Part shown: positions 3,420 to 44,376 of the stretch, one piece after another
Layout: each line of letters opens with the position of its first letter
Numbering within the stretch: position 1 is the stretch's first letter
Source of the DNA: Anthopleura xanthogrammica
Lineage: Eukaryota; Cnidaria; Anthozoa; Actiniaria; Actiniidae
Assembly: GCA_964019055.1 (NCBI GenBank)
Contig: OZ025221.1
Span: 2,649,713-2,713,712, forward strand
Direction of reading: 5' to 3'
DNA: 64,000 bases
The notes under the pieces: model-generated
Databases searched by the model: none
Told to the model about the DNA's origin: nothing
Seen by the model: only the letters and a program-made list of their open reading frames with translations
Position numbers and translations under genes: made by a program

Positions 3420-3445
3420 AGCCTGCGAGAAAAGAAAGACAGCTG
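3420..3445 (-). promoter_or_regulatory. likely 3' splice site of a 5'UTR intron before the GPCR
   Basis: On the minus strand CTTTCTTTTCTCGCAG is followed by GCT and then the receptor ATG. The pyrimidine tract and CAG make this a good acceptor, so transcription probably starts further upstream (higher coordinates) from an untranslated exon that I cannot locate. Confidence 0.5.
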
Positions 3446-11160: not shown

Positions 11161-11224
<64 letters not shown>

Positions 11225-14090: not shown

Positions 14091-15420
14091 CATCAAATAC
14101 ATCTTTCACATCTTCAAAATCTTTTTAGGGGACATCTTTCACATCTTTGGTGCAAACATCTTTCATATCTTGTGTGGAAACATCTTTAATTCACATCTTT
14201 GTTGGGAACATCTTTCCCATCTTGGATAGGGACATCTTTCATATCTTGTGTGGAAACATCTTTAATTCACATCTTTGTTGGGAACATCTTTCACATCTTG
14301 GGTGGGATATCTTTCACATCTTTGGTGGGGAAATCTTTAATTCATATCTTAGTTGGGAACATCTTTCACATTTTGGGTGGAAACATCTTTCATATCTTAT
14401 GTGGGGACATATTTCACATCTTGGGTGGGGACATTTTTCACATCTTTGGTGGGGACATCTTTCACATCTTGGATGGGGACATCTTTCATATCTTTGTTGG
14501 GAACATCTTTCACATCTTGGGTGGGGACATCTTTCACATCTTGGGTGGGAACATCTTTCATATCTTTGTTGGGAACATCTTTCACATCTTGGGTGGGGAC
14601 ATTTTTCACATCTTGGGTGGGGAAATCTTTCACATCTTGGGTAGGGACATCTTTCACATCTTGGGTGGGGAAATCTTTCACATCTTGGGTAGGGACATCT
14701 TTCACATCTTGTTTGGGGAAATCTTTTACGTCTTGAGTGGAACAACTGTAATTTACATCGTTGTTGGGAACATCTTTCACATCTTGGGTGGGGATATCTT
14801 TTACATCTTGTGTGGGGACATCTTTCCTATCTTGTGTGGAAACATCTTTAAATTAACATCTTTGTTGGGAACATCTTTCACATCTTGGGTGGGAACATCT
14901 TTCACATCTTGGGTAGGGACATCTTTCACATCTTGGGGGGGGGAAATCTTTCACATCTTGGGTAGGGACACCTTTCACATCTTGGGTGGAGAAGTCTTTC
15001 ACATCTTGGGTGAGACATCTTTCACATCTTGGGTGGGAAAATCTTTCACATCTTGGGTGGGACATCTTTAATTCACATCTTTGTTGGGGACATCTTTCAC
15101 GTCTTGGGTGGGGACAGCTTTCACATCTTGGGTGGGAACAGCTTTCACATCTCTGATGGGGACATCTTTTACATCTTGAGTGGGGACATCTTTCACATCT
15201 TTGGTGGGACATCTTTACTTCACATCTTTGTTGGGAACATTTTTCACATCTTGGGTGGGGACATCTTTTAAATCTTTGTTGGGAACATATTTCATAATTT
15301 GGGTGGGAACATCTTTCACATCTTGGGTAGGAACATTTTTCACATCCTTGTTGGGAGCATCTTTCATATCTTTGTTGGGGACATCTTTCACATCTTGGGT
15401 GGGAACATCTTTCACAGGAT
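14090..15420 (-). repeat. 24-bp minisatellite, coding at its 5' end for an octapeptide repeat
   Basis: More than 50 imperfect copies of a 24-bp unit. In the sense of the receptor gene (minus strand) it reads AAAGATGTCCCCACCCAAGA..., encoding K-D-V-P-T-Q-D-V. Only the portion from 15420 to 15215 lies in the open frame of the receptor's last exon. The rest follows the stop codon. At intervals a variant containing AATTAAAGATGT introduces an in-frame TAA (for example 15215-15217 and 15068-15070), so the array is a higher-order repeat with built-in stops. Confidence 0.92.
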
Positions 15421-15651
15421 TTTTGTCATCAATAGGAAGGTTTTCTTCATCATTTGTTTCTGCAGCATTTGCTTCTGAAACATTTTGGAAAAGATCCTGA
15501 GATTCTGTTGGTGGTTCTGGAACGGACATATTGGTTACTTCACTAGGAGCATCGGTGACAAGCTGGAGTATCTCGAGACAACATGTGGCACTACATTCTG
15601 GATTCTGCTTCAAAGCAAGTACTGTCGTCAAAACGTTTGAGATATACTTGA
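15215..15651 (-). CDS. LRR receptor last exon: cytoplasmic tail with KDVPTQDV repeats
   Basis: The acceptor TTTTATTTCAG at 15652-15662 joins in phase 1 to the preceding exon's GCAG end, giving ...VALVAV-KYISNVLTTVLALKQ. The first about 75 residues are acidic and Ser/Thr-rich without a recognised motif. The last about 68 are eight and a half octapeptides of the form K-D-V-P-(T/N)-(Q/K)-D-(V/M), ending K-D-V-K-stop. Reading past this TAA, the same frame continues for 48 codons of the same repeat before another TAA at 15068-15070. Confidence 0.82.
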
Positions 15652-18600
15652 CTGAAATAAAACATTAATGATAATTAGAACAATATTTGTATTTGTGCAT
15701 GAGGAAATTACTTCAACCATAGGTGAGAAGTCACTTATGTAAACCCTGTTCCGAAGTACAGGAGAGAACCAAGGAACAACTCTAGCTAATCACTTATATA
15801 GGATACATGTCGAAGCATCGGACCAACGATCATAGCCGCGATAGACAGTGCATCAGCTACGAAAACGACGACAAAATCAAATAGGCAGCTCTCAGTGTCA
15901 TCGAGCGATTGTTGGAGAAGAAGAGCAACTGCTAAGTTCCCCAATTTGTTAAATTTTGAATGAAATAAAAACTTTATATTTGCCTCCTGGAAGTGAAAAA
16001 ACGTTTCGTATTAATTTTTGACTACATACCTGCAACCAGAGCAATCACAAAGACATTTGCACCAACAAGAAAAACTGTAACTATAAGCGTGTCGGTCTGG
16101 TTGTTGATGCCTGATGTCGATTCTTCTTCTGGGATTTTCATCAGCATTCCGATGGTAAAGTTGACAGAACTTGCCATCAGAGAGTCCAGCTGCAGCCAGT
16201 GCTCAAATGCGTCTTCAATTGGTTTGGAATAAGCAAAAGCAACAGAGTATAGCCCAGATAAAATGGCAGTAAGACCAAGACTTGTGCGGCTTTCGGCATT
16301 CATGAGTATTAGCATTGACGTGACCACGATCTTCCGGACAACTTCAACAATCTCCCAGAACCAGCAATCTTGTGAGTAGTTTTCGTACAGAAAACGAGTC
16401 CCAACTAATATTGCACTCCTTTTGGGTTTGTCAACCCCAGCATTACGGCGAGCATATTTCAGGAGACAAAACATCCACAGTGGAAACCCGATACAATAGA
16501 TTAAAGACGCTGAGCCAAAACTGCTATACATGCTATGTTTTGCTGAGTTACATTTGATCGAGTAATCAGCTTTGAGATAGGAATTGCATTGGACGTTGCC
16601 ATAGGAACATATCTCTTGACAAGCAGCTGGTAGCATCTGGATGATGTGGGTACATGTCGATGGGAACGTGATAAACAGGATCAAGATCCAGAACCGATAG
16701 CTTTTCTCTTTATATTGACTTATTTGGATCTCTTGAGTTTCCTTTTCTTTGGTTCTGTACTTCACGTAACACTTTATGACAAAGTTGAAAACTGGCCCCA
16801 TCAAGATGACAACCGCTGTGATGGTGACACTGAGAAGAAGTTGAGTATAAGCATCTGCTCTTATCGAATGACTGATGCAGTTCACAGGTGCTATGACCAA
16901 AAGATTAAACTGCACCATCTTGGCGTATTTCATAATAGTAACGACCAGTCCCGGCCAACTGATGTATGAGAAAGAGTCAAAAGTAGCCACCGAGACTTGA
17001 TAGAACCCGATGACTATTTTAAGTCTGGCTAGAAAGATGTCCGTCAATGTCCGTGATGGGTTGTTTGGATCTCTTTTCTTCTCCCACAGAACAATGAAAA
17101 CAAGAACAGCCATTGCTAACGAAGCCATTACTATTTGTCCAATAATCCACGGTAAAGTTGGGCACTCTCGGCATTTGGTTAACACGTTGAAGTATCCCTT
17201 GCCACAAACAGCACACAGAGGACCTTCGTAGCCTTTGCCGCATTGTGAGTTACGCTTCCCTAAGCAAGATTCTGCGACTGGACAGGCGTAGACATTCGGT
17301 ATGTTATCTTCAAAGTTCTTTATTTTGTTCTCAGCATTTGTAATCATCAAGTCATTTTTAAAAGCCTCGTATTGTTGCTGGGATTTCTTGCTTTGCCACA
17401 CCCAATAGAATCCTGGCGCAAGATCGATAGTCTCATTCAGGCACACGTTGCCTTTGGTGCATATACTGCAAGGTCCAAATCGATCAAGGCGGTAGTAGTT
17501 TTCCATGCATCTGCAAGCGCGAAACTTTGCATGTTCCTTGAGATTTGTACCTGTTAGTTAAAGAAATTTGTTTCAATAAGCAACTGATATGTTATTTGAG
17601 AGAGAGAGAATTTCGGATATTTTCAATTTAGGCATATGATATTGGTGTATGATTAACATAGCGCTATTTCTTACTGCAGCAGATTAGCGAATGAAATTGG
17701 GTTAGGTAGCTACCTGGTGGACATGATTGACAGTCTGTTTGGGATTTTCCTGGTGCAAGCTCAGGCTTCACATAAGATCCCCGTGGACACTGCTTGCAAC
17801 CTAGATTATATGCTATTATGGTTGAATAACCCATCTCGTCCTGATAGAAGCCACCTGAAAGCATTTCAAAAAGGCAGTGTTTTATTTAATGAAGAACAAA
17901 ACAAAATGTTCGATTTGTGAGTTAACCGTGCGCTGACTTAGATCAGCCCAAAACTCTTGATGGTTTCATGGCTCGATCTTTGAGCTAGCCATGCCCTGAC
18001 TTAGATCAGCCTAAAAGTTGTTTCATGGTTCGATGTGCGACTTAGCCCCATGCCCTGACTTAGACCAGTGCTAAATTATAAGCTTTACCTGGTGGGCAGA
18101 GTTCACAGCTTTGTCTTGAAGGTGACTGAAAGCTTCCTCTATTACAAGGTTCACAGTCGAACGTGTCAAATGCCACTTGTCTACAGTTGTACCCAATTTG
18201 ACCCAAGACGGTTTTGGAATTCGTGTTCTGACCTCGGATCACAATTTCGGTGGTCGATTCTTGATTCTGTGACCTAACAGAAACGACACCATTAAAAATG
18301 ACCACTTATAAATACTGCGTAATCTTCGAATTAACTATAATCAGGAGTGAATATGACACAAACTTACACGATGTACGTTATGATAGCTTTTGTTGGCCAA
18401 ATGTTGAGTGGAATCGTCAACTGGGTGTCCAACAAATTTCTAGGGAAAAGAATACTGAGCCCTTCAAATGCCGGGTTTCAATGAACACATTTCCTGTCTC
18501 GTGTGGAATTTTTATTAGCTGAATGGCATGAATTACTAATAGAACATACCCGCTTGCAGGACGTCGGAATGCAGCCCAACTTGGAGGGTAAAACAATAGG

Positions 18601-21600
18601 TTTCAATTCTCAGGAGTTCTAAATTCTTTTGTTTTGCCCTTCAAATTAAACTGCATTCCGACGTGCTGCAAGTAGTCTATTCTTTCTCAAATAATGAGAT
18701 TAAAAGTTTTGAATTGAACTGTGTTTGAATTGCGTTGTTGAAGTTGTGCATTCGAATAAATGATTGTGTAATAGAGAAACACACGAAGTATTTTAGAAAT
18801 TCAAAGATTGACTCTTTTATCATTAACGTCTAGTTTATCTCATACAGCACATACGGCTACTTAGTGATCTAGCTGCTCACATGATTTTAAGACTTGGAAG
18901 AGATAGGAATGCCCCATCTTCAATAATTGTGAGCGGGTTTCCACTTAAAGATCTGTAAAAAGAACAAAAGTATCTGTAAAACTTTTAACAAGTGCTGGAC
19001 AAACCTTGAGAACCAGATATCAATTAAACTCTATGTAACTCTCATAAGGTTCAGTGGAGCATGAAACCACCTTTGGCCTACAATGAATACGGTGGTGCAA
19101 AACAGATCCATATGGCGCTCGTACTCTCCTTTCACTTTCCCAATAATCCTTAGCCTAATGATTTGCTCTTTTTAAGGTGTCAGCATACGTTTGAGGCCTC
19201 TGAGATTACTTTACGCGCGACCAAAATTTCGCGCTGCGTCTTCAATATTATTATATGAAAGTATGCATTTTCTGAAAGCTAAATAAACGTAGTTTTTAAA
19301 AATCAATATGGAATTTTCTGTTTCGCGACACAAAAAAAGTTATTGGCTTGAGTGACCAAAATATTGTTTTAAAAACATTGTAGCTCTTTTGGATTACATC
19401 GGATCGAACTGAAACTTTGGATTATGATAAATCACATTGCGATCTAAAAACAGACAATTATAAATAGATATTCGAAAACAACGTTTATTTAGCTTTCAGG
19501 AAATGTATACTTTTATGGCAAAATATTGTAAAGCCGGTGCGAAATTTGAGGTAGCGCGTATAGGGATCCTAATCATATCCTGATACCTTAAGGGCGTCGA
19601 ACCCGATAGGGAAAAACTGTCAGAAAAATTAACATTATCCAATCAGATGCTCCTTGTAGCTTGTTCTATACTTAAAATGCTGATTATCATCACGCATTTT
19701 CCTAGTTGATTTTGCACGCTGCTAACATTAAGAAGCCGAGTTAGTGTTACAGAACATTTCTTGTTTTACAAAGTACTTATAAGGTACTTACATAGCATTT
19801 AGCTTGGTGGCTCCTTTGAAGGTGTCGTTGATAATGCGTTCGATTCTGTTGTTATCAAGAAAACTAGAAAAGACCAAATCAGTTTGTAAAGTATCAATGG
19901 GTCGTAAAATGTATCAATCTATTCAAAGGTTGCCCAAACAGAGTGACCCTAAGCCGTTGATGGTAAGGTCTTTCTATTCCAGAACATATAGGTACCCCAG
20001 ACAATGAAATGCTATCCTTATGACAACTTAAAGTGCACCTAACCCCTGATACAATACCTTCAGTATCGATTCTACATTAAGTGAATAGTTGAATGGTAAA
20101 CTATTTCTTTATTTGATTGTTGCGATGATAAATCCTTTATTATACTCGTGTCCATTCTATAACCTTTACTAAGGTGCACTTTTACGGGGATCTCGGTCGT
20201 CTTGAAAATTGCTGGTTAACATGGTTAAATTAAGTATAAAAATCAAGGCAATGACGTGCTCTGAAATTCAAAAGCATTTCCTTCGAATTTTAAAAGAGGT
20301 CTGGAAGAAAAGTTCCTTCAGTCATAAGCAAAAACTACATTAGTTAAAAAGCTATGAATGCTCACACATTGGAAAGTTCTGCAATTTTCCTCATAAGCTG
20401 GAAGTTTTCCAGGGATCTGATTCGATTGCTTCCAAAAAATCTAAACAAGAACGAGAATAAAAGTCAAGGTACTGCTAACTCCCAGATCGAAACCTGAAAC
20501 AACGTCTGGGGTGATCTTAGTCAGGGCACAGCAGAAAACATACACATGAAGCCAACCAGGTGGTTTTTAATTATTTCAGGACTCTATAAACTTGTGTTAA
20601 GTTATTTTTTTTTAGCGTTACTTACATTTGACCTAAAGGACTGCCATAAAAGCGTGGAATGGTCGAAAATTCATTTTGATGCATTACCCTACGTAATAAA
20701 ATACAAAAAAGGTACGTTATCATCTTGTTTTCTTATTGCAAACTGCAAACACTGTCTAATACTTGCAGGTTTGTCAGGAAAATTAGACTAGAAAAAAATC
20801 CATCGGGTAGGTACTTGATACGGTTTCTGCTCAGCGTCCTGTATCATAAGAACTATTTCATAAGATATTATAACACAAATTATTTGACCTACAACAAGCT
20901 ACAATATTATTTGAATTGCAGCCAAATTTCATATATGTTATATCTACATTTGAAGCATTTTTGTCTCTGACGTTTTTTCAGCCTTAGAAATTTCTACTCA
21001 CTAGACTTCATCAGAAATAAAAGCGAATAAAAGAAAAAGAAAAACATTGTATGTATGCATTTAGGGATTATGTGTGGTACAAGTGCAAACTTTTGGTTCA
21101 GTTGCATGCATGATACACTTCTGGAATTTTCATTATATCTAAAATTCCATAATTAGTAGTTGTTGGACTGAATAGGGCCAAATTTTGTCTGAAATTATAG
21201 AAGGATTCCAAAAGTGCACGATACGAATACACAATAGGTCTTAAGTCTATTCCTTAACTTACAGACTGAAAAGGGTTGTAAGATTAAGAAAGGTTCTGTT
21301 GTCGAGATGCGTAAGTTTGTTGCCATCCAAATTTCTGGGTAAAAATACAGTAACAACCAATCAGAGCAACGCAACCAACTAACTGCCCAATAAACCTTTT
21401 TACTGATACGGCGGCCATCTTGAATTCTATTGTTTTAAGTAAGACATTTTTGAATGCTGTGTGTGGTGTGGTGTGGTGTGGTGTGGTGTGGTTATAACGA
21501 TAATTTTATCAACTGTACTTACACGTCTGTAAGAGAATGGCAGTTTTTGAATGCCCCTGGTGCAATATTTTCAATCATATTTTCTCTTAGGTTTCTGGAG

Positions 21601-33040: not shown

Positions 33041-33101
<61 letters not shown>

Positions 33102-36100: not shown

Positions 36101-39100
36101 TATATCATCTAACATGGTGACCATGTCTTTTGTTATATCATCCAACATGGTGGTCATGTCTTTTGTTATATCATCCAACATGGTGGCCATGTCTTTTGTT
36201 ATATCATCCAACATGGTGGTCATGTCTTTTGTTATATCATCCAACATGGTGGCCATGTCTTTTGTTATATCATCCAACATGGTGGCCATGTCTTTTGTTA
36301 TATCATCCAACATGGTGGTCATGTCTTTTGTTATAACATCCAACATGGTGGTCATGTCTTTTGTTATATCATCCAACATGGTGGCCATGTCTTTTTTTAT
36401 ATCATCCAACATGGTAGTCATGTCTTTTGTTATAACATCCAACATGGTGGTCATGTCTTTTGTTATATCATCCAACATGGTGACCATGTCTTTTGTTATA
36501 TCATCCAACATGGTGCCTTTTTCTTTATATTATCCAAGATCATGATGGTCATGTATTTTGACAACATTCATTATGGATTAACTTACAAACTATTCAGACC
36601 ATATAGTTTTTCAAATGCTCCTTCATCAATATCAGCAATTTTGTTACTCCGCAGAATTCTATAAAAAAGTGAAAAATGAAAAACAAATGTAGCAATCAAA
36701 AACAAATAGCCTGCTTTCTTCATTTTTTTATGTAATTGCATGATTTATTTGTGATATCTGGCATAAATACCAGTCATTAAATTGCAAAAATTTTGAAATA
36801 ATTCTCATGGTATTTATGTCAAATGTCACGAACAAATCATGCTATTAATTATTTATAATATGACTTGGGAAATTCACTTGAAGATCTGCAAATTTGCTTA
36901 TCCATCTTATGAGAAGCCGGACGCCAAGCACAGCCTTGACTTTAAATTACAACAACTGCAACAAAGACATCTACATCAACAACAACAACAACAACAACAA
37001 CAACATTAATAGCAACACCACAAATAACAACAACGACAACAATATCAACAATAACAAAACTAGAAAAATGTATATAAAAAGCTAAGGGTATTCTAGAAGC
37101 AGTTTTAGCCGTTTTAGGTAAATGTCAGTGGATAATTTGTAACTTATTTGCTGGTCTTGACTTGAGATTCGTCATAATAAGATTCAATTTTCAAGTCTGT
37201 CTTCAAAACTTCAAAAAAGTCGTCTTCGTTGAGCTATCTCATTTTGAATTTGAAAAAAAAGTCCGATACTTCATATATATGATGTAAGTTTTTGTTATTT
37301 GTGTTTCAACCAGAGATGGATAATCTTGTACACAATTGTAGAGCTTCAACAGAACGAACAACCTGCTTTTGTGAGTTAATTTACTGGATCTCATTTTTTC
37401 CTTTCGCCGAACGAAGTCCACTTGATTTTCAATTTCTGGCAGAAAAAAATTGCTTTTTTTTCGCCATTTCATTCTTAAAAGCCAACATTCCAGATGTCTT
37501 CCAAATATTCTTGGTCATGTGTTCGTATTTTTAAATTTAAGTTCTTGTTTAAAGACAAACATATTTACGCCAGTTTTTAAATTAGGCGATCTGCGTTGTT
37601 TTGGTGGTTGCCTTGGAATTGTAAAAAACAACCATTAGTCTCAGCCAATAACATTGCAGAAATTTCTTAGTTCATATTATAACTCTTCCTTAAACCTGAG
37701 TAAAAGAGACGTTCTCATGAATAATTCATAAGCATTTGTTCCAGTTATAACGACCATAAACGTCACGTGTTATACTCGATAAAGTCTTCTTTATTAGTAT
37801 TCTTTATAAACCTATTTCAGTTAACGTTGATAACGGGGGATCTGAAATGTTCGATCTGAGACCTATGCATGTTTTTTTTTGAAGGTTTTCAAATAGACCT
37901 TTCTCGAACTGTTTCACCATAGTTAATGGAGTGGAATGGTTTAGAAACCTATTGTTCTAGGCTTTTGTTTGGTTAGCGATGTTGAAACGTACCAACACGT
38001 GATATTGACCGTGCACAATGAACCAAAGCAAGTATGGCTGAAAATACTAGTTTCCGTACTATTTTCATGTACGAACATTTTGAAAGAGTAAAATTTTCAT
38101 GCTAAGATTAGAAAGAAGAAGATAAATAATTCCGCGCAGATACAGTTAAGTTACTAGATGATAAATAAGAAAGCGTTCAAAAAGGTGATTCCATTTTCAG
38201 TAAACAGTTAACCTTTGTCATATAGGATTAATCAACAAATATCTCCTATTTTAGAATATTTTTGAGAAAAAAAATCGTCTATGTTCCCTAATTTACGATG
38301 AACAAACGCTGCAACTTTTTCTTCTCTGTGCACGGTCAACGTCATATAACAATAGAAAAAGTTGAACAAAAACCTACAACAATAGGTTTCCAAACCATTC
38401 CACTCCATTAACTATGGTTTCACTAACCACATAACAAAAGATTCAAGTCCAGGGTGGGGTTTTCAAATTCACACATTTACTGCAGTTTTCTGCTCCAGCA
38501 TCACCTTGAATAGTTGTTCTCTGGTTAGTCAAGCGAATTTTGGAAAGGTCTATAAACTCGCCGTTGTGTTTTATCAGGTACTAAAACCACTCGGCTACGC
38601 CTTGTGCTTTTATATCCGATAAAATACTCCTACTCTATTTATAAACAGTAAGTAATCATGAAAAGGAAAGCAGTCGCATTTTGGGCTGGATATTACAGTG
38701 TGAACAATTCCTGCATTCCGGTGAAGATTCGTACTTTCAACTTCGTAATTCGATTCTTCTGCAAATCGCTGAAGAAGAAACATAAAGAAATGTTGGGGTT
38801 GTCAGTTCTACACAGGAAATACTTATTGATTGTTTTTCTTCGAATTGAATAAGTTTTCTGATGCTTTGAAGGCTTAAAATAGTATAATATTTTTTTCATA
38901 ATAGAATTTCTAAAATAAAAATGATTGATAAAAATGATATGTGTGCATAAATAAGTATCCCTTCAGAACAATTTTTTACACTTTTGAGGAAAAGAATTGG
39001 TAAAAAAGATGGTTATAATAAGATACATAAAATTTATGATAAATAAAATCAAAATGATGTTTACGTTATCGGTGTTTAGCGTTCATTATCTCGGTTAGAT

Positions 39101-42100
39101 GTGTGGGAATCCCATTTTTTTTCAGATTCCAGTGGCCTCTTGGGTGATTTAAAAGACTGACACAATTTTTTTTTTTAATTTAAAAAAATGGTTCGCAATT
39201 AGAAGGCACCATCCTGAACAATACCTGGAGTTAAATGTGTGTATTCATAAGGAAACAAAATAACTGTTCTGATAAAGAGGGATACTGAAAGGGGAAAACT
39301 GAACTGTTCTGAAAGGGGGATACATGTATACATAAATATATATTCGAGAATTCTCTTCTTTTTTTGTTTCAGGAACGGTGTATATTTATATATTACAGTC
39401 TTATCAATGAATTCAGTCCTGTGAAAGCTCCTTCTTCAAACGTTTCTATCTGATTGTTTGAAAGTAATCTGAAGAAGAAACAACATAAAGATATTCTTAA
39501 TTAAGATTACTACACTTGTTTTGTCAGTATTTTCTACTATTTTTTTGAAGTGGCACTTGGATAAAAAAAGGCCCTAATTTTTGAAAGTGCGAATATTTCA
39601 AGTATTTGAGGATAATATGACTTAATTATGATTATGAAAACCAGATTGGCGAAAATTGTAGCCTAGGAGCCACTTGCATTTCAGAAATGTTGGTTTAAAA
39701 ACTAAAAGAGCAATAGGGTTGAGTAAAAAAGACGTCATTTATTCACAATTTAGATGATGAAAAAAAATGATAACTTTTATCCGCCACTTTTGACAGCGAC
39801 GAAAATATGTTGCTTGGCTACTATTGGGACCATATAGATAAGTTTAACCAAGTTTCAAGTCATTTCCAATATTCGGGGGATTTTAAGGCGACTAATTTTA
39901 TTGAAATAAGTACAGTAATATCGACTTTTTATGGGGAGCGCCAGATCTTGTCTTGTATTACTTAGTGATGAGTTATGTGGTTTGTGTAGTAAACTTACAT
40001 TTCTGTTAAAAATGGAGCACCATTGAAGGTATTATTTTGCAGCAATTTTATGGCGTTGAAGTTCAAGTCTCTATAATGTAGGAAGAATAGAGACTGATGT
40101 AATAATGCAATTATTTAAAAATATATGTATATTAAGATATTTTGAAATATCGTAATTTCGTTTAAATTAGTCCAAACTGGATCAAATTTTCAGTCCATAC
40201 TATTTTTTAGGTGTTCTTTCTTATGATGGGGATTGTTCGTAAATTAGATATAATTTGAGAAACTCGATCCCAGTCCCCTGATGTTTTGCCATCGGCTAAT
40301 TTGGTTTATATTCTACTTTACTCACACGTTATCCAAACGTTGCAAGTCATAAAATGATCCTGGTTCAATTGATTCAATTGCATTCCATGACAAGTTTCTA
40401 AAAAATATTGATGAGATATATTAAGAGATTATCCTTGTCCTGTATGACGTGAAATTTAACTTGGAATAGACCTCTTTAGTTTCGTTGTTTGTTGTGCCCA
40501 TTTCAGACCATGTGATGCCACACTTGGGATGAGTTGATTCTTTCATGTATAAATACTTAACAAAAGAAACGTTTCTCAACGGAATGTCATGTGGTCTGAA
40601 ATGGGCAATTTTCATACGAAGCTTTTAAACAGGTAAAGTCCCTCATCAGTCAGTACATTATATTCCTATGGCATACCGTCAAACTCTATAATGAGTAACA
40701 ATAAACACGGAGAATAATAATTATTAACTCTACTTATACAATGATATTGCTGGTATCAAGCATTTAGAAGGATTTCATTAGCTATCACGTGACATTTCGT
40801 TTGGTCTAAATGTCTTTTTTGGTGGACAACATTAATGAAATTGGCTGTATATAACTTACAGATATTGAAGATTTGAAACATCATTGAATACTCCTTTCTC
40901 GATATGTCGTAACTTGTTGCGTTGCAGTTGTCTGAGAAATACAATATATTTAATATATTAAGTATCTTGGCCTCACAGTATACACAGAAATATTTCGCAT
41001 ATCGGGCTTATGGAAAACAAATATTTCTTTTCTCAATAACAAAAAAATGCTGAAATGCGCAAGCAAGCGCAAAAGTTTTTCACAAGTTTTTTTACGATCT
41101 CAACAACACATCTACGATGACTACGCATGCGTCATAGGTATTATCTAGTTTGATAAACAGGGTGCATTGTGGTCCAGCTTGGGTACAAACATCTTTTTTT
41201 GGTCTACCCAAGCTAGACCACAATTCATCATGTTTATCGAACTCAGGAAATGCCAGAATGCATTGTGGTCTTGCATTGGTACAAACGTGGAAACTTATAT
41301 AAAAAGTACTAAACAAAAGATATTCGTACCAAAGGTAGACCACGATATATCTCTTAGAATGGAAGTGCTACATTATTTCACTTACATTTCGTTCATAAGG
41401 TCAAGTCCTTTAAACATGCCTGGCTTCAGTAGTTGAATGTCGTTTTCTCCAAATAATCTGTTAAATATAGTTAATAATTTTTTGGTCTGGCTTATTCCTT
41501 CCCATCTGTTCTCTTCCCTTCCCCCTTTGCTTCTCTTCTCTTCTCTTCTCTTCTCTTCTCTTCTCTTTTCTTATAAAAAAGCTTTTCTCCTATTCTTCAG
41601 ATCATATCATTCAGTTCTTATGCTTACAATTTTAAGGTGCGAGGAGGAATGTTTTCAGGAATCGATGATATGTTATGACATGTCAATATTATTGTCGAAT
41701 ACCAGCCACGTTTGCATTCACATTTAGACGGACAAGCTTTACAAGAACAGTAAGCAAAAGTTCCGTTAATAAACTAGTATTTTGAACATTCAAACAATAC
41801 TCCTACTTACAGTGCAGAGACACTCGAACCATGAACACTTCGATGTTTTTTTAACATTTTTTCATAACTATCCAATCAGCACTCTCCGTAAAAACAAAGG
41901 AATCAAATATTTGTAGCCGCCATCCAATCACAACAAACAGAAAATATTTAGAGGTTTTTTTTTTAACTTCTCAGGTGAACTAATGAACTGCTAAATCACA
42001 TAAATTATGCCGTTGGTTGTGATTAGATGAGACCTAAAAAAAGTTTTTTTTTTTTTTTTCAATGGAGAGTGCTGATTGGATAGTTATGAAAAATGTCAAC

Positions 42101-44376
42101 AAAAAAAAACCTCGGAGTGTTCACGTTTCGGGTGTCCGCACTGTAAGAATACTCCCGTTTCGAGTTCTCTTTTACGCTGTGTTAGCCTCAAAACCGTTTA
42201 ATATATTCTTTAATTCAGTAACAGCCCGTCGAAATTCAAGAGATCTGTGTGTAAAGAAGACAATAAAAATACTTTGAAATTTCACGAGTTTTATCTAAAT
42301 TTCTGCATAATTTACGCACAATTGAGGCTAACACAGCGTAAAAGAGAACTCGAAACGGGAGTATTAAGCATGAACCCTGGGTTATGGCTAAGGGTTCTTA
42401 ATTCACTTGGGGGTACGTTAAGGCCTTACAGAGGTTGTAAGGGATCGTCAAAATGAATGGGGATGTGAGGGGAAACTATGTGGATTCTGGGTTTTAAAAC
42501 AGCATTTTTTTTGGCAGCTACCCGATTTTAAACCCAATATGTTATATGTCCCTCCTCTAGAATAGATCCTTTGCCAAAATGGCGGCCGTAAATTCGAATG
42601 ACTTAAAACTAAAAGTTACTAATTATGAGTGAAAAACCAGTACCAGCACTAGAAAGAGCACCTTTACTTTAGTAACCCTACAAAGATTCATTATTCCAGG
42701 TGTTAAATTGGCCGAGAAAACGTTTTTGAAAATCGAAAAATTTACAGACGTTTGTGTGTCTGGGGGTATACGTTAATTATTTTGGCAAAGGGTCTATTGT
42801 AGAATATAATAGATATGAATATTACATGATCAATTCTTGATAATTTTTTAATGGATAAATAGCAGTACCCTTTTCTCAAAATTATGAACACCAGGCAATG
42901 TCAGGAAAAACGACTCGCCAATGAGATTACAAATCGTGTTTTCGAAAAATGCATCAATTTAAGGAGGCTCGAAATGGTTTTCCTTGAACGAGCGCGCGCG
43001 CTCTTAAATGACGTAGCACTGAATCATTTGAAATGAAAATAGGAAAATGTTGTCCTAAAAACCTCATACTTAAACTAAAATAACTCAAAAACTGGACAGT
43101 AAATTTTTTTTAAACTTTGCATGTGGTTTTTATTTAATGGTTCGTAAGTGCTAAGAAAAAATAAGAAAATTCTGTAATGGGGAACGTCCTTAAATAAACT
43201 TCATTGAATTTTGAGAATTTCTCATTACAGAATTTTTTCTTTTTCGGTCTAATCAAAGATTGGATTATGAACTTCAAATATGCCAATTTTAAACGATTTT
43301 CACCGTTCGGTTTTTGAGTTATGATTTTTTAAATGAAAAAATTTGCACACATTTTAAGTGTTCTATCGTTGGCATAGCAACGTGTTACGTCATATTTTTC
43401 TTTTTATTCCAACCTTTACTTTATGGTCTTTCGTCTTCTGGGTCAACTTACGGTCATATATTAGTCATATAAAGTTTTTCAGGGTCATTTTTGTTAGTCT
43501 ATATGGAAGTTCAAAAACCCTTTCTAGCCTCCTTAATGTGTTTTGAGCGTTCAATCCTTGATCAGAAGTAGAGAAAAAAATGGCGGTCAAGAAAATGCAA
43601 AGAGAAGTGTCATTTAGACGAGGATTAAAAAAACTTTTTTAATTGTTTCTGATGAACAAAATTACGAGAATATTTATGGCAAATCGGCTATTTCAAAGAT
43701 TCAGATGCGGTAATGAACACAGATTGTTCCCTTTGATTCTTACTGCTTCTTTGCAAAATTTTAAGACCAAGAAGCTATATTTTCATTTTTTATTTATTTA
43801 TTTATTTTTTTGCGAAGCCAAATGAACCCACTTATGAACTTTCACATCCCACGCTGTATTTGGTTCAAAGTGATGAAAACAAAATGTCTCCCATTAAACG
43901 AAGAAAACTTGAACTGCTTAAAAGTCTAAGAAAGTATATACTTCTACTGTTAAAGAAAATTACTTAATATTCATGTTTACTTAACTCTCTTAAGATTTTT
44001 TAGATGATAAATAGCGGAAATATCATTGAATTTGCTTTAAAAATGCTGAAAACAGAGACTTTTGATTTCTTTTCTTTTCTTTACCGATAAGGGATGTTGT
44101 GTTGCTTTAGTTTCACGACGAAAAAAGGCAAAATATAATACACAATTTCAAACAAAAACAAAAAACAGATAAAAATGACAAAAAAATTTTATTTTTATTT
44201 TTGACTGGCGGCAGTGAAAAACCAAATTCCAACGGGAAAACTTGCAGCTACAGAAATTGCAGAATATTGAGAATCTCAGTAAGACTGAGTACAATACAAT
44301 GTTTACCTGCACTCGTGTTGTGACACACCTTAGAGAATAGTAAGGACAGCAAAATGATCTTCACGAGAATATCCAT
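15215..44376 (-). CDS. LRR - GCC2/GCC3 - multi-pass (TRP-like) membrane receptor, whole gene
   Basis: Join of 36 coding exons on the minus strand, each bounded by GT-AG sites and in phase: 44307-44376, 41628-41736, thirty LRR exons listed below, 18089-18273, 17714-17854, 16030-17550, 15215-15651. The total is 4611 bp, 1536 residues. Order: signal peptide (1-23), LRR N-terminal cysteine cap (24-59), 30 LRRs (60-776), GCC2/GCC3 and related cysteine-rich stalk (777-1016), about nine membrane segments (1017-1391), and a cytoplasmic tail ending in octapeptide repeats (1392-1536). There is no LRR C-terminal cap. Known family: proteins with CPPG.Y modules and a GY.GPLCAVC box before a TRP-like helical bundle occur in protists and invertebrates. 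The 30-LRR ectodomain suggests a recognition or adhesion receptor or a ligand-gated channel-like protein, which is inference. Transcript data would settle exon usage. Confidence 0.85.
16030..17550 (-). CDS. LRR receptor exon: cysteine-rich stalk plus multi-pass membrane domain
   Basis: The largest exon, 507 codons, phase 1 at both ends. Residues from 885 on hold a cysteine-rich part (C..C pairs, PGFYW, then GYEGPLCAVCGKGYF and CRECP) directly before the first membrane helix (about 1017-1040, PTLPWIIGQIVMASLAMAVL). Landmarks of the TRP-like bundle follow: RLKIVIGFYQVSVATF with YISWP after it, a helix near QLLLSVTITAVVILMGPVFN, YRFWILILFITFP, and FLYENYSQDCWFWEIVEVVRK, then two more hydrophobic segments to VTVFLVGANVFVIALVA. 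I count eight to ten membrane segments. The K-x4-GFYQ/WP and Y-x5-W-x-WE-x5-RK pattern resembles GCC2/GCC3-linked TRP-like proteins. I recognise no selectivity filter. Confidence 0.88.
17714..17854 (-). CDS. LRR receptor exon: second GCC2/GCC3 (ephrin-receptor-like) module
   Basis: 47 codons, phase 1-1, between acceptor TGCTTTCAG and donor GTAGCT. It contains GGFYQDEMG, CKQCPRGSYVKP, and C-Q-S-C-P-P-G at the 3' end, the spacing typical of GCC2/GCC3 repeats. As a symmetrical exon it could be skipped or duplicated in frame. Confidence 0.85.
18089..18273 (-). CDS. LRR receptor exon: linker and first GCC2/GCC3 module
   Basis: 185 bp, entering in phase 2 from the last LRR exon (AT|G) and leaving in phase 1. 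A Ser/Thr/Gln-rich linker (SQNQESTTEIVIRGQNTNSK) is followed by a cysteine-rich module with C-E-P-C-N-R-G-S-F and C-E-L-C-P-P-G. This exon changes intron phase from the 2-2 LRR series to the 1-1 stalk series. Confidence 0.83.
18881..18952 (-). CDS. LRR exon 30 (last)
   Basis: Core SLSGNPLTIIEDGAFLSL, ending LKIM across the junction with the 185-bp exon. Acceptor TTTTTACAG, donor GTGAGC. No cysteine cap follows. Confidence 0.85.
19792..19863 (-). CDS. LRR exon 29
   Basis: Core FLDNNRIERIINDTFKGA. Acceptor TTTTCTAG, donor GTAAGT. Contains an N-D-T glycosylation sequon. Confidence 0.85.
20366..20440 (-). CDS. LRR exon 28 (75 bp, one residue longer)
   Basis: Core FFGSNRIRSLENFQLMRK. The GTGAGC donor at 75 bp keeps phase 2, whereas the overlapping GTGTGA donor two bases earlier would give 73 bp and break the frame. 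The G-x-F turn is replaced by NFQL. Confidence 0.72.
20626..20688 (-). CDS. LRR exon 27, candidate (63 bp, short repeat)
   Basis: A 21-residue unit VMHQNEFSTIPRFYGSPLGQ with the LRR Asn and an I-P turn, between a pyrimidine-rich acceptor ending ACGTAG and donor GTAAGT. Phase is preserved (1+60+2). It is the weakest LRR of the set and could be a cryptic or optional exon. Confidence 0.5.
21263..21334 (-). CDS. LRR exon 26
   Basis: Core NLDGNKLTHLDNRTFLNL, then TTLFSL. Acceptor TTTTACCCAG, donor GTAAGT. N-R-T and N-L-T sequons. Confidence 0.86.
21458..21492. repeat. (GGTGT)n microsatellite
   Basis: About seven tandem TGTGG pentamers in the intron between LRR exons 25 and 26. Confidence 0.9.
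21523..21594 (-). CDS. LRR exon 25
   Basis: Core NLRENMIENIAPGAFKNC, with a Cys in the convex part that is unusual for this array. Acceptor CTCTCCAG, donor GTAAGT. Confidence 0.87.
21888..21959 (-). CDS. LRR exon 24
   Basis: Core TLDKNKLRRIEEGIFSNN. Acceptor TCTCCCTAG, donor GTGAGT. Confidence 0.86.
22206..22365. repeat. short foldback with G-rich interior
   Basis: CGCAGGGACCGCGGAGC at the left and its near complement GCTCCGCGGTCCCTGTG at the right bracket two poly-G tracts. It is GC-rich compared with its surroundings and lies in the intron between LRR exons 23 and 24. Confidence 0.65.
22435..22500 (-). CDS. LRR exon 23 (66 bp, two residues shorter)
   Basis: Core DLQNNLIENLEPGIFTKT, then GFRM. 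Acceptor TTGACACAG, donor GTAAGT. The missing two residues lie after the Phe turn, so the strand and Asn ladder are kept. Confidence 0.82.
23061..23132 (-). CDS. LRR exon 22
   Basis: Core YLGNNRISFVGKDWFNKT, with Trp before the Phe. Acceptor CACTTTACCAG, donor GTGAGT. N-K-T sequon. Confidence 0.86.
23310..24310 (+). mobile_element. 5'-truncated LINE 3' end (RT thumb and C-terminal domain)
   Basis: The reading frame at 23324-24076 carries NISKTKVMLVG, VKLLGVHIDRSLSW, LLIKPLIEYCAPVWG, LRLKRAAR-like IRLRKRAARTIFDA, and WNSLSVELKSASSLNNFK, the standard 3' part of CR1/L2/Jockey-like non-LTR retrotransposons. The catalytic palm is missing, so it is a 5'-truncated copy. It ends in TATTTATTTATT and a poly-T run (about 24190-24210). 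It sits antisense in the intron between LRR exons 21 and 22. The frame is intact over 250 codons, suggesting a fairly recent insertion. Confidence 0.85.
24376..24447 (-). CDS. LRR exon 21
   Basis: Core NLTSNRTQHIQEGVFDDV. The hydrophobic residue after the Asn is Thr-Gln here, a mild deviation. Acceptor TTGTTTAG, donor GTAAGT. N-L-T and N-R-T sequons. Confidence 0.84.
24585..24815. mobile_element. MITE-like repeat with CCAGCTGAGTTGA end
   Basis: Starts GCCAGCTGAGTTGATCGCC and carries GAATTTCTTGGCAGAATTAT-like, GGAAATGCTAATCAAAATA and TTGACCTTGAGTTTGTTCTT. The same sequence lies in reverse orientation at 35158-35447. Confidence 0.6.
24976..25047 (-). CDS. LRR exon 20
   Basis: Core SLSGNSFDMLENGIFQGL. 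Acceptor TTTTTTTCTAG, donor GTACGT. Confidence 0.86.
25390..25461 (-). CDS. LRR exon 19
   Basis: Core YLQNNNISYIKKGVLAKV, with Leu in place of the usual Phe. The acceptor ATTTAAG has a weak pyrimidine tract, the weakest acceptor of the series. Donor GTAAGT. Confidence 0.78.
25871..25942 (-). CDS. LRR exon 18
   Basis: Core DLSDNAISAIQENTFNDM. Acceptor TTTTTTTCCAG, donor GTACGT. N-D-M is not a sequon but N-T-F keeps an LRR turn. Confidence 0.87.
26342..26413 (-). CDS. LRR exon 17
   Basis: Core YLNRNKITKLTGGVFNGT. Acceptor ATATTTCAG, donor GTAAGT. The preceding intron holds the octamer satellite. Confidence 0.88.
26560..28070. repeat. (AACCAAAC)n satellite, about 1.5 kb
   Basis: Uninterrupted octamer from about 26565 to 27780, then two related blocks with AACCAACC variants to 28070. 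Three octamers make 24 bases, so several frames on both strands stay open and produce long spurious reading frames (T-K-Q-P-N-N-Q and V-W-L-F-G-C-L). A separate (CCAA)n tract follows at 28290-28325. All of it lies within one intron of the receptor gene. Confidence 0.97.
28086..28222. repeat. foldback MITE, ~60-bp arms
   Basis: CACTGTAAAAATAAGAAAGA and GGACGCTAGTCCTT at the left are mirrored by AAGGACTAGCGTCC and TCTTTCTTATTTTTTACGGTG at the right, with only about 8 bp between (TACTCCGACG). Confidence 0.85.
28387..28458 (-). CDS. LRR exon 16
   Basis: Core HISGNNVEELIPGTFREL. Acceptor GTGCTTAG, donor GTAAGT. Confidence 0.86.
28675..28822. mobile_element. MITE, family with copies at 18546-18690, 26190-26232 and 35930-36072
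   Basis: Left end ACTTGCAGCACGTCGGAAT...CAGCTCAATTTGGAG and right end with GAGCTGCTTTGACGT...GGAGTCTGTA are inverted to each other. The interior carries ACAAAATAATAGGTTCCACT and TTCTCAGGAG. All four copies are in introns of the LRR receptor gene. Confidence 0.65.
28825..29130 (+). mobile_element. tRNA-derived SINE
   Basis: A tRNA-like head with GGTGGCGTACGCTGGTAACGCG and a B box GGTTCGAGCCC is followed by GAGGGTTTTCTCCGGGTATTCCGG, GTGTCCCCAATTAATGCG and a TTTATTTATTT tail. The central 'TTCTCCGG' part is shared with the element at 53017-53275. Confidence 0.6.
29336..29407 (-). CDS. LRR exon 15
   Basis: Core HIDNNNLTFLLEGLFTKL. Acceptor CAATTTCAG, donor GTGAGT. N-L-T sequon. Confidence 0.86.
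29824..29895 (-). CDS. LRR exon 14
   Basis: Core NVSNNKIKAIGQGAFKDL, close to consensus. Acceptor TTTTCTTCAG, donor GTAAGT. Confidence 0.88.
30094..30165 (-). CDS. LRR exon 13
   Basis: Core DLSHNQLEWIRGDEFLTL. Acceptor AATTATCAG, donor GTAAGC. Confidence 0.87.
30669..32008. mobile_element. large foldback element, ~0.5-kb inverted arms
   Basis: The left arm 30669-31230 is nearly the exact reverse complement of the right arm 31510-32008. The arms differ by a few substitutions and about 50 bp of extra sequence in the left arm near 31135-31190. The roughly 280-bp centre (31230-31510) is not repeated. Each arm carries the same 66-codon open frame (starting MVRLLTLVLDLSSVCKQ) pointing outward, at 30895-31095 (-) and 31582-31782 (+). 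No transposase is visible. It lies between LRR exons 12 and 13. Confidence 0.85.
32343..32414 (-). CDS. LRR exon 12
   Basis: Core ILRENKIETIQPGTFEGL. Acceptor GGGTTTTATAG, donor GTAAGT. Confidence 0.88.
32440..32720 (-). mobile_element. SINE copy in reverse orientation
   Basis: Read on the minus strand: GTGAGAGTGCTCACCTCTC-like head, CCAAGGCGACCAGAGCTCGAG, then TTTTCTCCGGGTTCTCCGGTT, TCCAATTCGATCATGGAA and GTTAGCCACTGGCTATTA. The order is the same as the element at 53017-53275. Confidence 0.7.
33030..33110. repeat. (CA)n microsatellite
   Basis: About 35 AC dinucleotides with a single interruption. Confidence 0.95.
33340..33995. repeat. tandem repeat, ~57-61-bp unit, about 11 copies
   Basis: The unit includes CTGTGAGTTACCCGTGCCCT, GACTTTGATCAGCCCA and GAGGTTGTTTCAGGGTTTAA. 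Some units have an extra TGCA. The array follows a SINE 3' half (33240-33340). Three divergent units of the same family occur at 17925-18062 in another intron. Confidence 0.9.
34456..34527 (-). CDS. LRR exon 11
   Basis: Core DIKENGLKSIGESWFQHK, with Trp before Phe as in exon 22. Acceptor TTTCTTTTTAG, donor GTAAGT. Confidence 0.85.
34695..34957. repeat. foldback MITE, ~75-bp arms
   Basis: Left AAAGCGTGCATTTGGTTGGT...GACCTAAGAATAAGCGAAATCAT is mirrored by ATGATTTCGCTTAATTTTGGGTC...GAACGCTT on the right. Confidence 0.7.
35045..35116 (-). CDS. LRR exon 10
   Basis: Core HMGGNKIQDIHPRAFEGL. Acceptor CTTTCGCAG, donor GTACGT. Confidence 0.87.
35158..35447. mobile_element. MITE-like repeat, inverted relative to 24585-24815
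   Basis: Bounded by CCAGCTGAGTTGACC on the left and GCAATCAACTCAGCTGG on the right, about 14-bp terminal inverted repeats. The interior has TTTTGATTAGCATTTCCCG and ATACTCGAAAAATGCTCGAA. Confidence 0.7.
35479..35550 (-). CDS. LRR exon 9
   Basis: Core DLMYNRITTVEKGAFNET. Acceptor TGCTTCTAG, donor GTAAGT. N-E-T sequon. Confidence 0.88.
35723..35794 (-). CDS. LRR exon 8
   Basis: Core YLKNNSIQIVQSGTFRGL. Acceptor CTGTGAAAAG has a poor pyrimidine tract, but phase, length and repeat match. Donor GTAAGT. N-N-S sequon. Confidence 0.83.
36065..36530. repeat. 33-bp minisatellite, about 14 copies
   Basis: Unit ATCATCCAACATGGTGG-(C/T)-CATGTCTTTTGTTAT. Because the unit is 33 bp and lacks stops, both strands are open (M-V-A-M-S-F-V-I-S-S-N on plus, M-L-D-D-I-T-K-D-M-A-T on minus). 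It is intronic, between LRR exons 7 and 8. Confidence 0.95.
36587..36658 (-). CDS. LRR exon 7
   Basis: Core ILRSNKIADIDEGAFEKL. Acceptor CTTTTTTATAG, donor GTAAGT. Confidence 0.88.
36736..36844. repeat. small foldback
   Basis: CATGATTTATTTGTGATATC...GGCATAAATACCA is mirrored by TGGTATTTATGTCAAATGTC...ACAAATCATG. Confidence 0.6.
36970..37005. repeat. (CAA)n microsatellite
   Basis: About nine ACA/CAA triplets, followed by AAT/AAC-rich low-complexity sequence to 37060. Confidence 0.85.
37909..38420. mobile_element. MITE with ~45-bp terminal inverted repeats
   Basis: Left end ACCATAGTTAATGGAGTGGA...TGGTTTAGAAACCTATTGTT and right end AACAATAGGTTTCCAAACCA...TCCACTCCATTAACTATGGT are inverted repeats, with TTC on both flanks as a possible 3-bp target duplication. 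The ~420-bp interior has no coding potential. Confidence 0.75.
38697..38768 (-). CDS. LRR exon 6
   Basis: Core DLQKNRITKLKVRIFTGM. Acceptor TTTCTTCTTCAG, donor GTAATA (weaker than most). Confidence 0.85.
39397..39468 (-). CDS. LRR exon 5
   Basis: Core LLSNNQIETFEEGAFTGL. Acceptor TTTCTTCTTCAG, donor GTAATA. The acceptor and donor context resembles exon 6, suggesting the two are a recent duplicate pair. Confidence 0.87.
39999..40070 (-). CDS. LRR exon 4
   Basis: Core DLNFNAIKLLQNNTFNGA. Acceptor CATTATAG, donor GTAAGT. N-N-T sequon. Confidence 0.86.
40326..40397 (-). CDS. LRR exon 3
   Basis: Core NLSWNAIESIEPGSFYDL. Acceptor TATTTTTTAG, donor GTGAGT. Confidence 0.88.
40860..40931 (-). CDS. 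LRR exon 2
   Basis: Core QLQRNKLRHIEKGVFNDV. Acceptor GTATTTCTCAG, donor GTAAGT. Confidence 0.88.
41386..41457 (-). CDS. LRR exon 1
   Basis: Core LFGENDIQLLKPGMFKGL. The acceptor TATTTAACAG joins TT|A to the LRRNT exon, giving TLKL-LFGEN. Donor GTAAGT. Confidence 0.88.
41530..41572. repeat. (TTCTC)n microsatellite
   Basis: About eight CTTCT pentamers in the short intron between the LRRNT exon and LRR exon 1. On the minus strand this is a purine-rich GAGAA array, which could also act as a splicing enhancer-like tract. Confidence 0.85.
41628..41736 (-). CDS. LRR receptor exon: N-terminal cysteine cap (LRRNT)
   Basis: Contains CPSKCECKRGW...LTCHNISSIPENIPPRTLKL, the C-x3-C-x-C-x(n)-C and 'IP..IP' pattern of LRRNT caps. 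It enters in phase 1 (G|CT, Ala) after acceptor TTCTTGTAAAG and leaves in phase 2 (TT|) at donor GTAAGC, which converts the signal-peptide phase into that of the LRR series. 109 bp, residues 24-59. Confidence 0.85.
41800..42366. repeat. two adjoining foldbacks sharing a GGAGTATT-type end
   Basis: First foldback: 41803-41895 (AATACTCCTACTTACAGTGC... AACTATCCAATCAGCACTCT) against 42060-42152. Second: 42146-42190 (ATACTCCCGTTTCGAGTTCT) against 42324-42368 (AGAACTCGAAACGGGAGTAT). They abut at AATACTCC. The CTTACAGTGC in the first arm mimics an LRR-exon donor but has no exon. Confidence 0.7.

What the first reader, a model, noticed from the sequence alone, without database searches (positions are those of the whole stretch)
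15215..44376. A 36-exon receptor with 30 LRRs fused through GCC2/GCC3 modules to a TRP-like membrane bundle
Seen: every exon has GT-AG sites, all phases agree, and the summed CDS is 4611 bp, divisible by three, with a signal peptide first and a stop last. Known: LRRNT, LRR, GCC2/GCC3 and TRP-like multi-pass domains each exist. Inference: the combination of a very long LRR ectodomain with a TRP-like pore-type bundle is, to my knowledge, not a described receptor class. It could be a pattern-recognition or adhesion receptor that gates or couples to a channel-like domain.
Basis: partly seen in the sequence, partly recalled or inferred. Interest (0 to 1): 0.9.

Follow-up and report, generated by a model that had tools for sequence, protein, structure and literature searches.

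The report
LRR receptor on nine-helix membrane module
A marine-animal gene (most like those of corals and sea anemones) encodes a very long leucine-rich-repeat surface receptor joined through a cysteine-rich stalk to a nine-helix membrane module that is shared with some unicellular eukaryotes and that matched no solved structure; similar genes, with no function we could find described, occur in corals, sea cucumbers and a sponge.

Summary
On the minus strand, 39 coding exons (44376→15215) give 1608 residues: signal peptide, LRRNT-like cap, 33 single-repeat LRR exons (reader: 36 exons, 30 LRRs; the shortfall equals three 72-bp exons), two Cys-rich GCC2/GCC3-type exons, one exon with DUF7630 plus the membrane bundle, and a tail ending inside a minisatellite. 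One intron is GC-AG. LRR-type exons: 29 on the gene strand, 1 opposite, mean 0.41 in shuffles.

The fusion is not unique: single proteins with LRRs, Cys stalk and the same bundle occur in anemones, corals, a jellyfish, echinoderms and a sponge, mostly unnamed. The bundle is predicted (pLDDT 88) as nine helices, N-out/C-in. It is related through intermediates to Pfam PF06011 ('TRP' of fungi) and to algal and ciliate proteins, and shares its nine-pass plan with apicomplexan CRMPs. It hits no animal TRP, polycystin or GPCR profile, and no solved fold matches significantly.

Best reading: a contact/pattern-recognition receptor whose nine-pass module signals ligand binding inward, possibly through Ca2+. 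The architecture is shown; signalling is inferred. New variant of a known kind.

The parts
44307..44376 (-). exon 1: start codon and signal peptide
   Evidence: hydrophobic MDILVKIILLSLLFSKVCHNTSA, judged by eye
41628..41736 (-). exon 2: LRRNT-like Cys cap (CPSKCEC...C)
   Evidence: LRRNT named from the Cys pattern, no Pfam LRRNT hit
41386..41457 (-). exon 3: LRR 1
40860..40931 (-). exon 4: LRR 2
40326..40397 (-). exon 5: LRR 3
39999..40070 (-). exon 6: LRR 4
39397..39468 (-). exon 7: LRR 5
38697..38768 (-). exon 8: LRR 6
36587..36658 (-). exon 9: LRR 7
35723..35794 (-). exon 10: LRR 8
35479..35550 (-). exon 11: LRR 9
35045..35116 (-). exon 12: LRR 10
34456..34527 (-). exon 13: LRR 11
34047..34118 (-). 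exon 14: LRR 12
32343..32414 (-). exon 15: LRR 13
30094..30165 (-). exon 16: LRR 14
29824..29895 (-). exon 17: LRR 15
29336..29407 (-). exon 18: LRR 16
28387..28458 (-). exon 19: LRR 17
26342..26413 (-). exon 20: LRR 18
25871..25942 (-). exon 21: LRR 19
25390..25461 (-). exon 22: LRR 20
24976..25047 (-). exon 23: LRR 21
24376..24447 (-). exon 24: LRR 22 (degenerate motif)
23061..23132 (-). exon 25: LRR 23
22435..22500 (-). exon 26: LRR 24 (66 bp)
21888..21959 (-). exon 27: LRR 25
21523..21594 (-). exon 28: LRR 26
21263..21334 (-). exon 29: LRR 27
20767..20838 (-). exon 30: LRR 28, GC-AG intron follows
20626..20688 (-). exon 31: LRR 29 (63 bp)
20366..20440 (-). exon 32: LRR 30 (75 bp)
19792..19863 (-). 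exon 33: LRR 31
18881..18952 (-). exon 34: LRR 32
18368..18439 (-). exon 35: LRR 33 / C-terminal cap (degenerate)
18089..18273 (-). exon 36: cap end and first GCC2/GCC3-type Cys module
   Evidence: PF07699 17.8 bits, below cut-off
17714..17854 (-). exon 37: second GCC2/GCC3-type Cys module
16030..17550 (-). exon 38: Cys region, DUF7630 and nine-helix membrane bundle
17162..17290 (-). DUF7630 (PF24633) within exon 38
   Evidence: 33.1 bits, cut-off 27
16034..17155 (-). nine predicted transmembrane helices within exon 38
   Evidence: pLDDT 87.9 and 87.3
15215..15651 (-). exon 39: cytosolic tail with a CxxxCC segment, ends in KDVPTQDV-type repeats; stop at 15215

Best explanation
The gene encodes a cell-surface recognition receptor: a 33-repeat LRR solenoid held outside the cell on a disulphide-rich GCC2/GCC3-DUF7630 stalk, joined to an ancient nine-pass membrane module (PF06011/CRMP-like) with a cytosolic tail. 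Shown by sequence and prediction: exon structure, domain order, nine helices, N-out/C-in topology (by inference from the model), conservation of the fusion in other animals. Inferred: the LRR solenoid binds a ligand (microbe, symbiont, neighbouring cell or matrix), the stalk passes the binding on to the nine-pass module, and the module and tail start an intracellular response, most plausibly Ca2+-linked signalling or triggered exocytosis, as proposed for the CRMPs of apicomplexans and ciliates. Ligand recognition by the LRRs is the likeliest step; channel activity is the least certain.
For: Gene model. Same fusion in single proteins from Actinia, Nematostella, Oculina, Stylophora, Acropora, Rhopilema, Apostichopus, Holothuria and Oscarella. 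Membrane exon up to 82% identical to unnamed-source ORFs; 15 Cys positions invariant in a 10-sequence alignment down to 29% identity. Bundle predicted at pLDDT 87.9/87.3 as nine helices, with a Cys-bearing insert on the side that the topology puts outside. Related to algal and ciliate proteins: an HMM from the animal-side alignment hits 27 of 27 distant proteins at 34-152 bits; hhalign against 26 of them gives probability 100 over 448 columns. PF06011 hits among relatives. NCBI names three relatives in the listings 'cysteine repeat modular protein A-like' (P0015, P0202, P0211). CRMPs: nine TM helices in Toxoplasma and Plasmodium members, ephrin-receptor-like/EGF-type modules, cytosolic C-terminus shown for one of them, needed for regulated exocytosis (PMC9815656 and PMC9670195, passages). 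Added ectodomain modules (CUB, SRCR, MAM, Ig, FN3) on the same bundle, across coral radiations. LRR part closest, among solved structures, to ALS, LRRTM, LRIG1, LRRC15, LGR4, TLR3.
Against: No ligand, partner, expression or transcript evidence. Direct alignment to a CRMP sequence was not made, and Tetrahymena CRMPs are predicted to have five, not nine, TM helices (PMC9670195). The window protein has no PF06011 hit. The cytosolic tail has no recognised signalling domain. A pure adhesion role is not excluded.
Confidence: 0.45

Rival explanations
1. Ligand-gated ion channel: the nine-pass module forms a Ca2+-permeable pore (alone or as oligomer) gated by the LRR ectodomain, the reader's TRP-type reading.
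Against: No animal TRP, polycystin or ion-channel Pfam hit; no pore-bearing solved fold matches significantly; a fungal FLC protein shares 1-2% identity with TRPML1/PKD2; a calcium role of FLC need not mean a pore.
Confidence: 0.25
2. GPCR-like receptor analogous to LGRs: LRR ectodomain coupled to a divergent G-protein-coupling bundle.
Against: Nine helices, not seven; no 7tm Pfam hit, while a rhodopsin-type GPCR in the same window scores 83 bits; no GPCR chain stands out with the membrane-only model.
Confidence: 0.12
3. Adhesion or anchoring protein without its own signalling: the bundle only anchors a long LRR rod at the membrane.
For: LRR rods serve adhesion in many proteins (established knowledge); tail lacks known domains.
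Against: A single helix would suffice for anchoring; the bundle is well conserved (up to 82% identity) and related to algal and ciliate proteins.
Confidence: 0.15
4. Artefact: two neighbouring genes (LRR gene plus membrane gene) or a decaying copy wrongly joined.
For: No transcript data; stop lies at a minisatellite; 33 LRRs exceed every relative scanned (31 by the scan against 28 for the next).
Against: Same fusion in single proteins of distant animals; 39 exons all open and in phase; membrane exon intact and conserved; no second copy found elsewhere in the window.
Confidence: 0.03

Closest known systems
Unnamed animal LRR-GCC2/3-DUF7630-nine-pass proteins (e.g. Actinia LOC116301966, Nematostella LOC5521529, Apostichopus and Oculina paralogues)
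   Same: Same bundle (26-52% identity to exon 38 in a 60-sequence alignment) and LRR ectodomain in one protein; 83 of the first 89 have at least 3 LRRs
   Different: Fewer LRRs (next highest 28 against 31 in the same scan); some add CUB, SRCR, MAM, Ig or FN3 modules
Cysteine repeat modular proteins (CRMPs) of apicomplexans and ciliates
   Same: C-terminal multi-pass bundle (nine helices in Toxoplasma and Plasmodium), Cys-rich ephrin-receptor-like/EGF modules before it, cytosolic C-terminus (PMC9815656, PMC9670195, passages); three relatives carry that name at NCBI
   Different: No LRR ectodomain in the passages read; kringle, MAR or lectin-type modules instead; five helices predicted in Tetrahymena; direct sequence alignment not made here
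PF06011 'TRP' proteins (fungal FLC/Pkd2 family) and algal relatives
   Same: Part of the bundle matches PF06011 in relatives
   Different: Window protein itself does not hit; no ML-like PF14558 domain
Aplysia ApLRRTK receptor
   Same: LRRs with a GCC2_GCC3 region in one receptor ectodomain (PMC4200351, passages)
   Different: Eight or nine LRRs, one transmembrane helix and an intracellular tyrosine kinase
LGR receptors (LGR4/5) and Toll-like receptors
   Same: Extracellular LRRs similar by sequence
   Different: No 7tm or TIR domain; nine helices

Membership tests
Animal LRR + GCC2/3 + DUF7630 + nine-pass family | exon-38 bundle homologous and in one protein with LRRs | tested here: met
Animal LRR + GCC2/3 + DUF7630 + nine-pass family | DUF7630 above its curated cut-off | tested here: met
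   31.2 against 27 bits; 33.1
Animal LRR + GCC2/3 + DUF7630 + nine-pass family | GCC2/GCC3 (PF07699) above its curated cut-off | tested here: not met
   17.8 against 23.1 bits; Cys pattern present by alignment
PF06011 (fungal FLC-type 'TRP') | profile match above gathering cut-off | tested here: not met
   no hit at E up to 1 in the exon or up to 0.1 in the whole protein; relatives do hit
PF06011 (fungal FLC-type 'TRP') | ML-like N-terminal domain (PF14558), present in most FLC proteins tested in PMC9600462 | tested here: not met
   absent from the Pfam scan
Animal TRP / polycystin channels | ion-channel Pfam models, six-helix unit | tested here: not met
   no such hit; nine helices predicted
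Animal TRP / polycystin channels | TRP/polycystin fold | tested here: inconclusive
   TRPM4 chains appear only as non-significant rows
GPCR / LGR | seven-helix 7tm domain | tested here: not met
CRMP | nine-pass bundle with cytosolic C-terminus and Cys-rich modules directly before it | tested here: met
   by prediction only against the description of the Toxoplasma/Plasmodium members in PMC9815656 and PMC9670195 (passages)
CRMP | direct sequence homology to a named CRMP | not tested
   no CRMP sequence fetched; only NCBI names of relatives
CRMP | role in regulated exocytosis | not testable with these tools
   needs experiment
Toll-like receptor | cytosolic TIR domain | tested here: not met

The most novel reading that the evidence does not exclude
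Early-branching animals and echinoderms possess a large, unnamed class of recognition receptors in which exchangeable ectodomains (LRR rods up to 33 repeats, with CUB, SRCR, MAM or Ig modules) drive a nine-pass module of a fold with no solved relative found, inherited from unicellular ancestors and shared with the contact-linked exocytosis sensors (CRMPs) of apicomplexans and ciliates; in anthozoans it may act as a diversifying self/non-self or symbiont receptor that triggers Ca2+ signals or discharge of secretory organelles.
Probability: 0.35. Interest if true: 0.85.

Novelty: new variant of a known kind. Interest (0 to 1): 0.55.

Why it matters
If the nine-pass module is a signalling unit, animals keep a receptor class that is neither GPCR, TRP, Toll nor kinase, with a membrane bundle that no solved structure resembles at significant score, and it has many entries in single coral and sea-cucumber genomes (22 Oculina and 16 Apostichopus entries among the 94, isoforms not separated). 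It would tie animal recognition receptors to machinery by which apicomplexans and ciliates are thought to sense contact before exocytosis, and would give coral immunity and symbiosis work a large, testable family now filed as 'uncharacterized' or named after its LRRs.

Tried and rejected

Paper searches (only this open-licence library): DUF7630 0; DDB_G0281931 0; GCC2_GCC3 + leucine-rich repeat 3 (one is the Aplysia LRR-GCC2_GCC3 single-pass kinase, read as passages; one a fungal GPCR survey that lists both domains apart, passages; one listing only); ephrin_rec_like + LRR + transmembrane 1 (Eph evolution, passages: LRR domains in Capsaspora Eph-like proteins, not this architecture); GCC2 + coral + LRR 1 (unrelated by title); PF06011 6 (three fungal, three crustacean sensory-gene surveys; one fungal read as passages, five listing only). 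None seen describes this architecture; most hits of the broader searches (56, 9 and 21 papers) were seen as listings only.

Full report
Gene model. I rebuilt the gene on the minus strand by scanning for in-frame AG...GT segments and joining them by phase. It has 39 coding exons from 44376 to 15215: a signal-peptide exon, an LRRNT-like Cys cap, 33 exons that each encode one LRR unit (30 of 72 bp, the others 66, 63 and 75 bp, all entered and left in phase 2), two Cys-rich exons, a 1521-bp exon with the membrane region, and a tail exon. The protein is 1608 residues. One intron (after exon 30) is GC-AG. Some units (exons 24, 31, 32, 35) are degenerate LRRs; my scan of the 33.

More than chance. 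A fixed LRR-exon pattern between splice dinucleotides occurs 29 times on the gene strand of 18000-44400, once on the opposite strand, and 0.41 times on average (maximum 2) in 100 dinucleotide shuffles. Pfam gives LRR_8 433.6 bits, DUF7630 31.2 (cut-off 27) and Ephrin_rec_like 17.8 (below its cut-off of 23.1). Outside 15000-44500, tblastn of the protein against the window finds only the tail repeats (14 pieces) and two weak pieces of E 2.4 and 3.5.

One gene, and a family. A protein search with residues 900-1480 returned 94 proteins. Of the first 89, which hit at E of 1e-55 or better, 83 have at least three LRRs by a position-specific scan built from this gene's own units, in which our protein scores 31 and the next, from the sea cucumber Apostichopus, 28. 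The six with fewer than three are P0022, P0016, P0015, P0025, P0041 and P0024. Several carry extra CUB, SRCR, MAM, Ig or FN3 modules (Pfam column). A tree of 45 membrane regions (of the 200-odd in hand; midpoint root) puts the window gene with an unnamed-source ORF (P0117, 82% identity), then P0120 and Actinia P0001 (100/99), inside a set of anthozoan radiations in which the added ectodomain modules are scattered. The Actinia protein also runs on through the exon 38/39 junction with similar sequence.

The membrane module. A search with exon 38 alone gave 745 proteins, of which 120 were listed. AlphaFold2 on a 60-sequence alignment gave pLDDT 87.9, pTM 0.86, and the membrane part alone, on 59 sequences, 87.3 and 0.85: nine long helices (exon-38 residues 132-154, 168-192, 233-265, 269-304, 336-370, 398-415, 421-441, 447-471, 483-505), short helices at 200-225 and a strand insert at 310-332. 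A hydropathy profile alone showed fewer clear segments. With the Cys-rich stalk outside, the four Cys at 310-333 fall outside and the basic loops at 155-167 and 371-397 inside, which is self-consistent (my reading). Strongly conserved positions include K177, Q184, W198, D328, C333, the ENY motif and the W-x-W-E-x2-E-x2-R-K helix; 15 Cys are invariant in that 10-sequence alignment.

What it is related to. Distant hits from algae (Mesostigma, Volvox, Chlamydomonas, Ectocarpus and others), the ciliate Halteria and unnamed sources came from a search with the Mesostigma protein (23 proteins including the query; only the 7990 candidates sharing most words were scored). An HMM built only from the animal-side alignment matched all 27 distant proteins collected (34 to 152 bits; E-values refer to that small file), and hhalign against 26 of them, cut to the matched cores, gave probability 100 over 448 columns (partly circular, since the cores were cut with the same HMM). 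PF06011 was above cut-off in 3 of 4 distant proteins that I chose because they were listed with it, and in 1 of the 7 that hit it among 10 relatives scanned (the 7 were likewise chosen for it, the other three, the closest relatives, had no hit). In the listings, PF06011 is precomputed for 0 of 94, 4 of 23 and 8 of 120. So the bundle is homologous to PF06011-type proteins through intermediates, yet the window protein is not itself a PF06011 match. PF06011 is the fungal FLC family; the identity of a Cryptococcus member with human TRPML1 and PKD2 is 1.1 and 2.4% in PMC9600462 (passages). 'TRP-like' is therefore a label, not a demonstrated pore.

CRMP comparison. Three relatives are named 'cysteine repeat modular protein A-like' by NCBI (P0015, P0202, P0211). 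In PMC9815656 (passages) Toxoplasma CRMPs have nine TM helices, a conserved core of two EGF-like modules plus the TM region, ephrin-receptor-like modules in the family, and similar predicted bundles in Dictyostelium proteins; in PMC9670195 (passages) the C-terminus of TgCRMPa is cytosolic, ciliate and Toxoplasma members act in regulated exocytosis, and the authors propose contact sensing; they also state that Tetrahymena CRMPs are predicted to have five TM helices and that CRMPs are not bona fide GPCRs. The match in plan is close; I made no direct sequence alignment to a CRMP. Some relatives, including P0186 (507 residues, no LRR listed), are named after the Dictyostelium protein DDB_G0281931, which hints that a social amoeba has the bundle too (inference from a name).

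Ectodomain precedent. The Aplysia receptor ApLRRTK joins eight or nine LRRs and a GCC2_GCC3 region to one helix and a tyrosine kinase (PMC4200351, passages), so LRR plus GCC2/GCC3 is a described pairing; on a nine-pass bundle I found no description.

Mechanism. Shown: architecture, topology by prediction, conservation. Inferred: ligand binding by the LRR solenoid, coupling through the disulphide-rich stalk, signalling by the nine-pass module. I rank receptor signalling of unspecified output above a ligand-gated channel, above plain adhesion and GPCR-like coupling. The extra modules on the same bundle and the many Oculina (22) and Apostichopus (16) entries among the 94 (isoforms not separated) favour recognition of variable targets. 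PMC10236652 (passages) reports that most gene families amplified in corals are receptors likely related to recognition and innate immunity but, in the passages read, does not name this architecture. A table of symbiosis-dependent Hydra genes lists a 'gcc2 and gcc3 family protein' (PMC6019070, passages); whether it belongs here is unknown.

Limits. No transcripts, no species name, no own-genome search (tool busy at seven tries), no direct CRMP or fungal FLC alignment, and a C-terminus that ends at a minisatellite.

Noticed in passing
14128-15416: 24-bp minisatellite, 52.7 copies; its first part is coding in exon 39 (KDVPTQDV-type repeats) and the stop lies in this stretch, so tail length may vary between alleles.
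   Followed up: partly
2421-3539 (-): Long open frame of a rhodopsin-type GPCR, 7tm_1 83.2 bits.
   Followed up: no
10516-12185 (+): Retroelement remains: reverse transcriptase, RNase H-like (just under cut-off) and integrase SAM-like domains in successive open frames.
   Followed up: no
23306-24073 (+): 256-codon open frame antisense in intron 24; reads like the end of a LINE reverse transcriptase (recalled), no Pfam hit.
   Followed up: no
26545-28069: Intron 19 holds an 8-bp (ACCAAACA) array of about 192 copies, open in several frames.
   Followed up: no
36068-36515 and 33345-33984: Introns 9 and 14 hold a 33-bp array (13.6 copies, open on both strands) and a long-period array (TRF period 57, 10.9 copies).
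   Followed up: no
57966-58355 (-): F5/8 type C (discoidin) frame of another gene, 58.7 bits.
   Followed up: no
P0094: EukProt protein of unnamed species with LRR-like repeats (LRR Pfam hits listed), Cys stalk and a bundle hit by the animal HMM: LRR fusion apparently outside the animal set, ancient or convergent.
   Followed up: partly
models m2427de00320d and mf0b4c2afcfcb: TMEM16 chains recur among the non-significant Foldseek rows, a weak hint only.
   Followed up: no
PMC6019070: A 'gcc2 and gcc3 family protein' is listed among symbiosis-dependent Hydra genes; a possible lead to function if it is a member.
   Followed up: no
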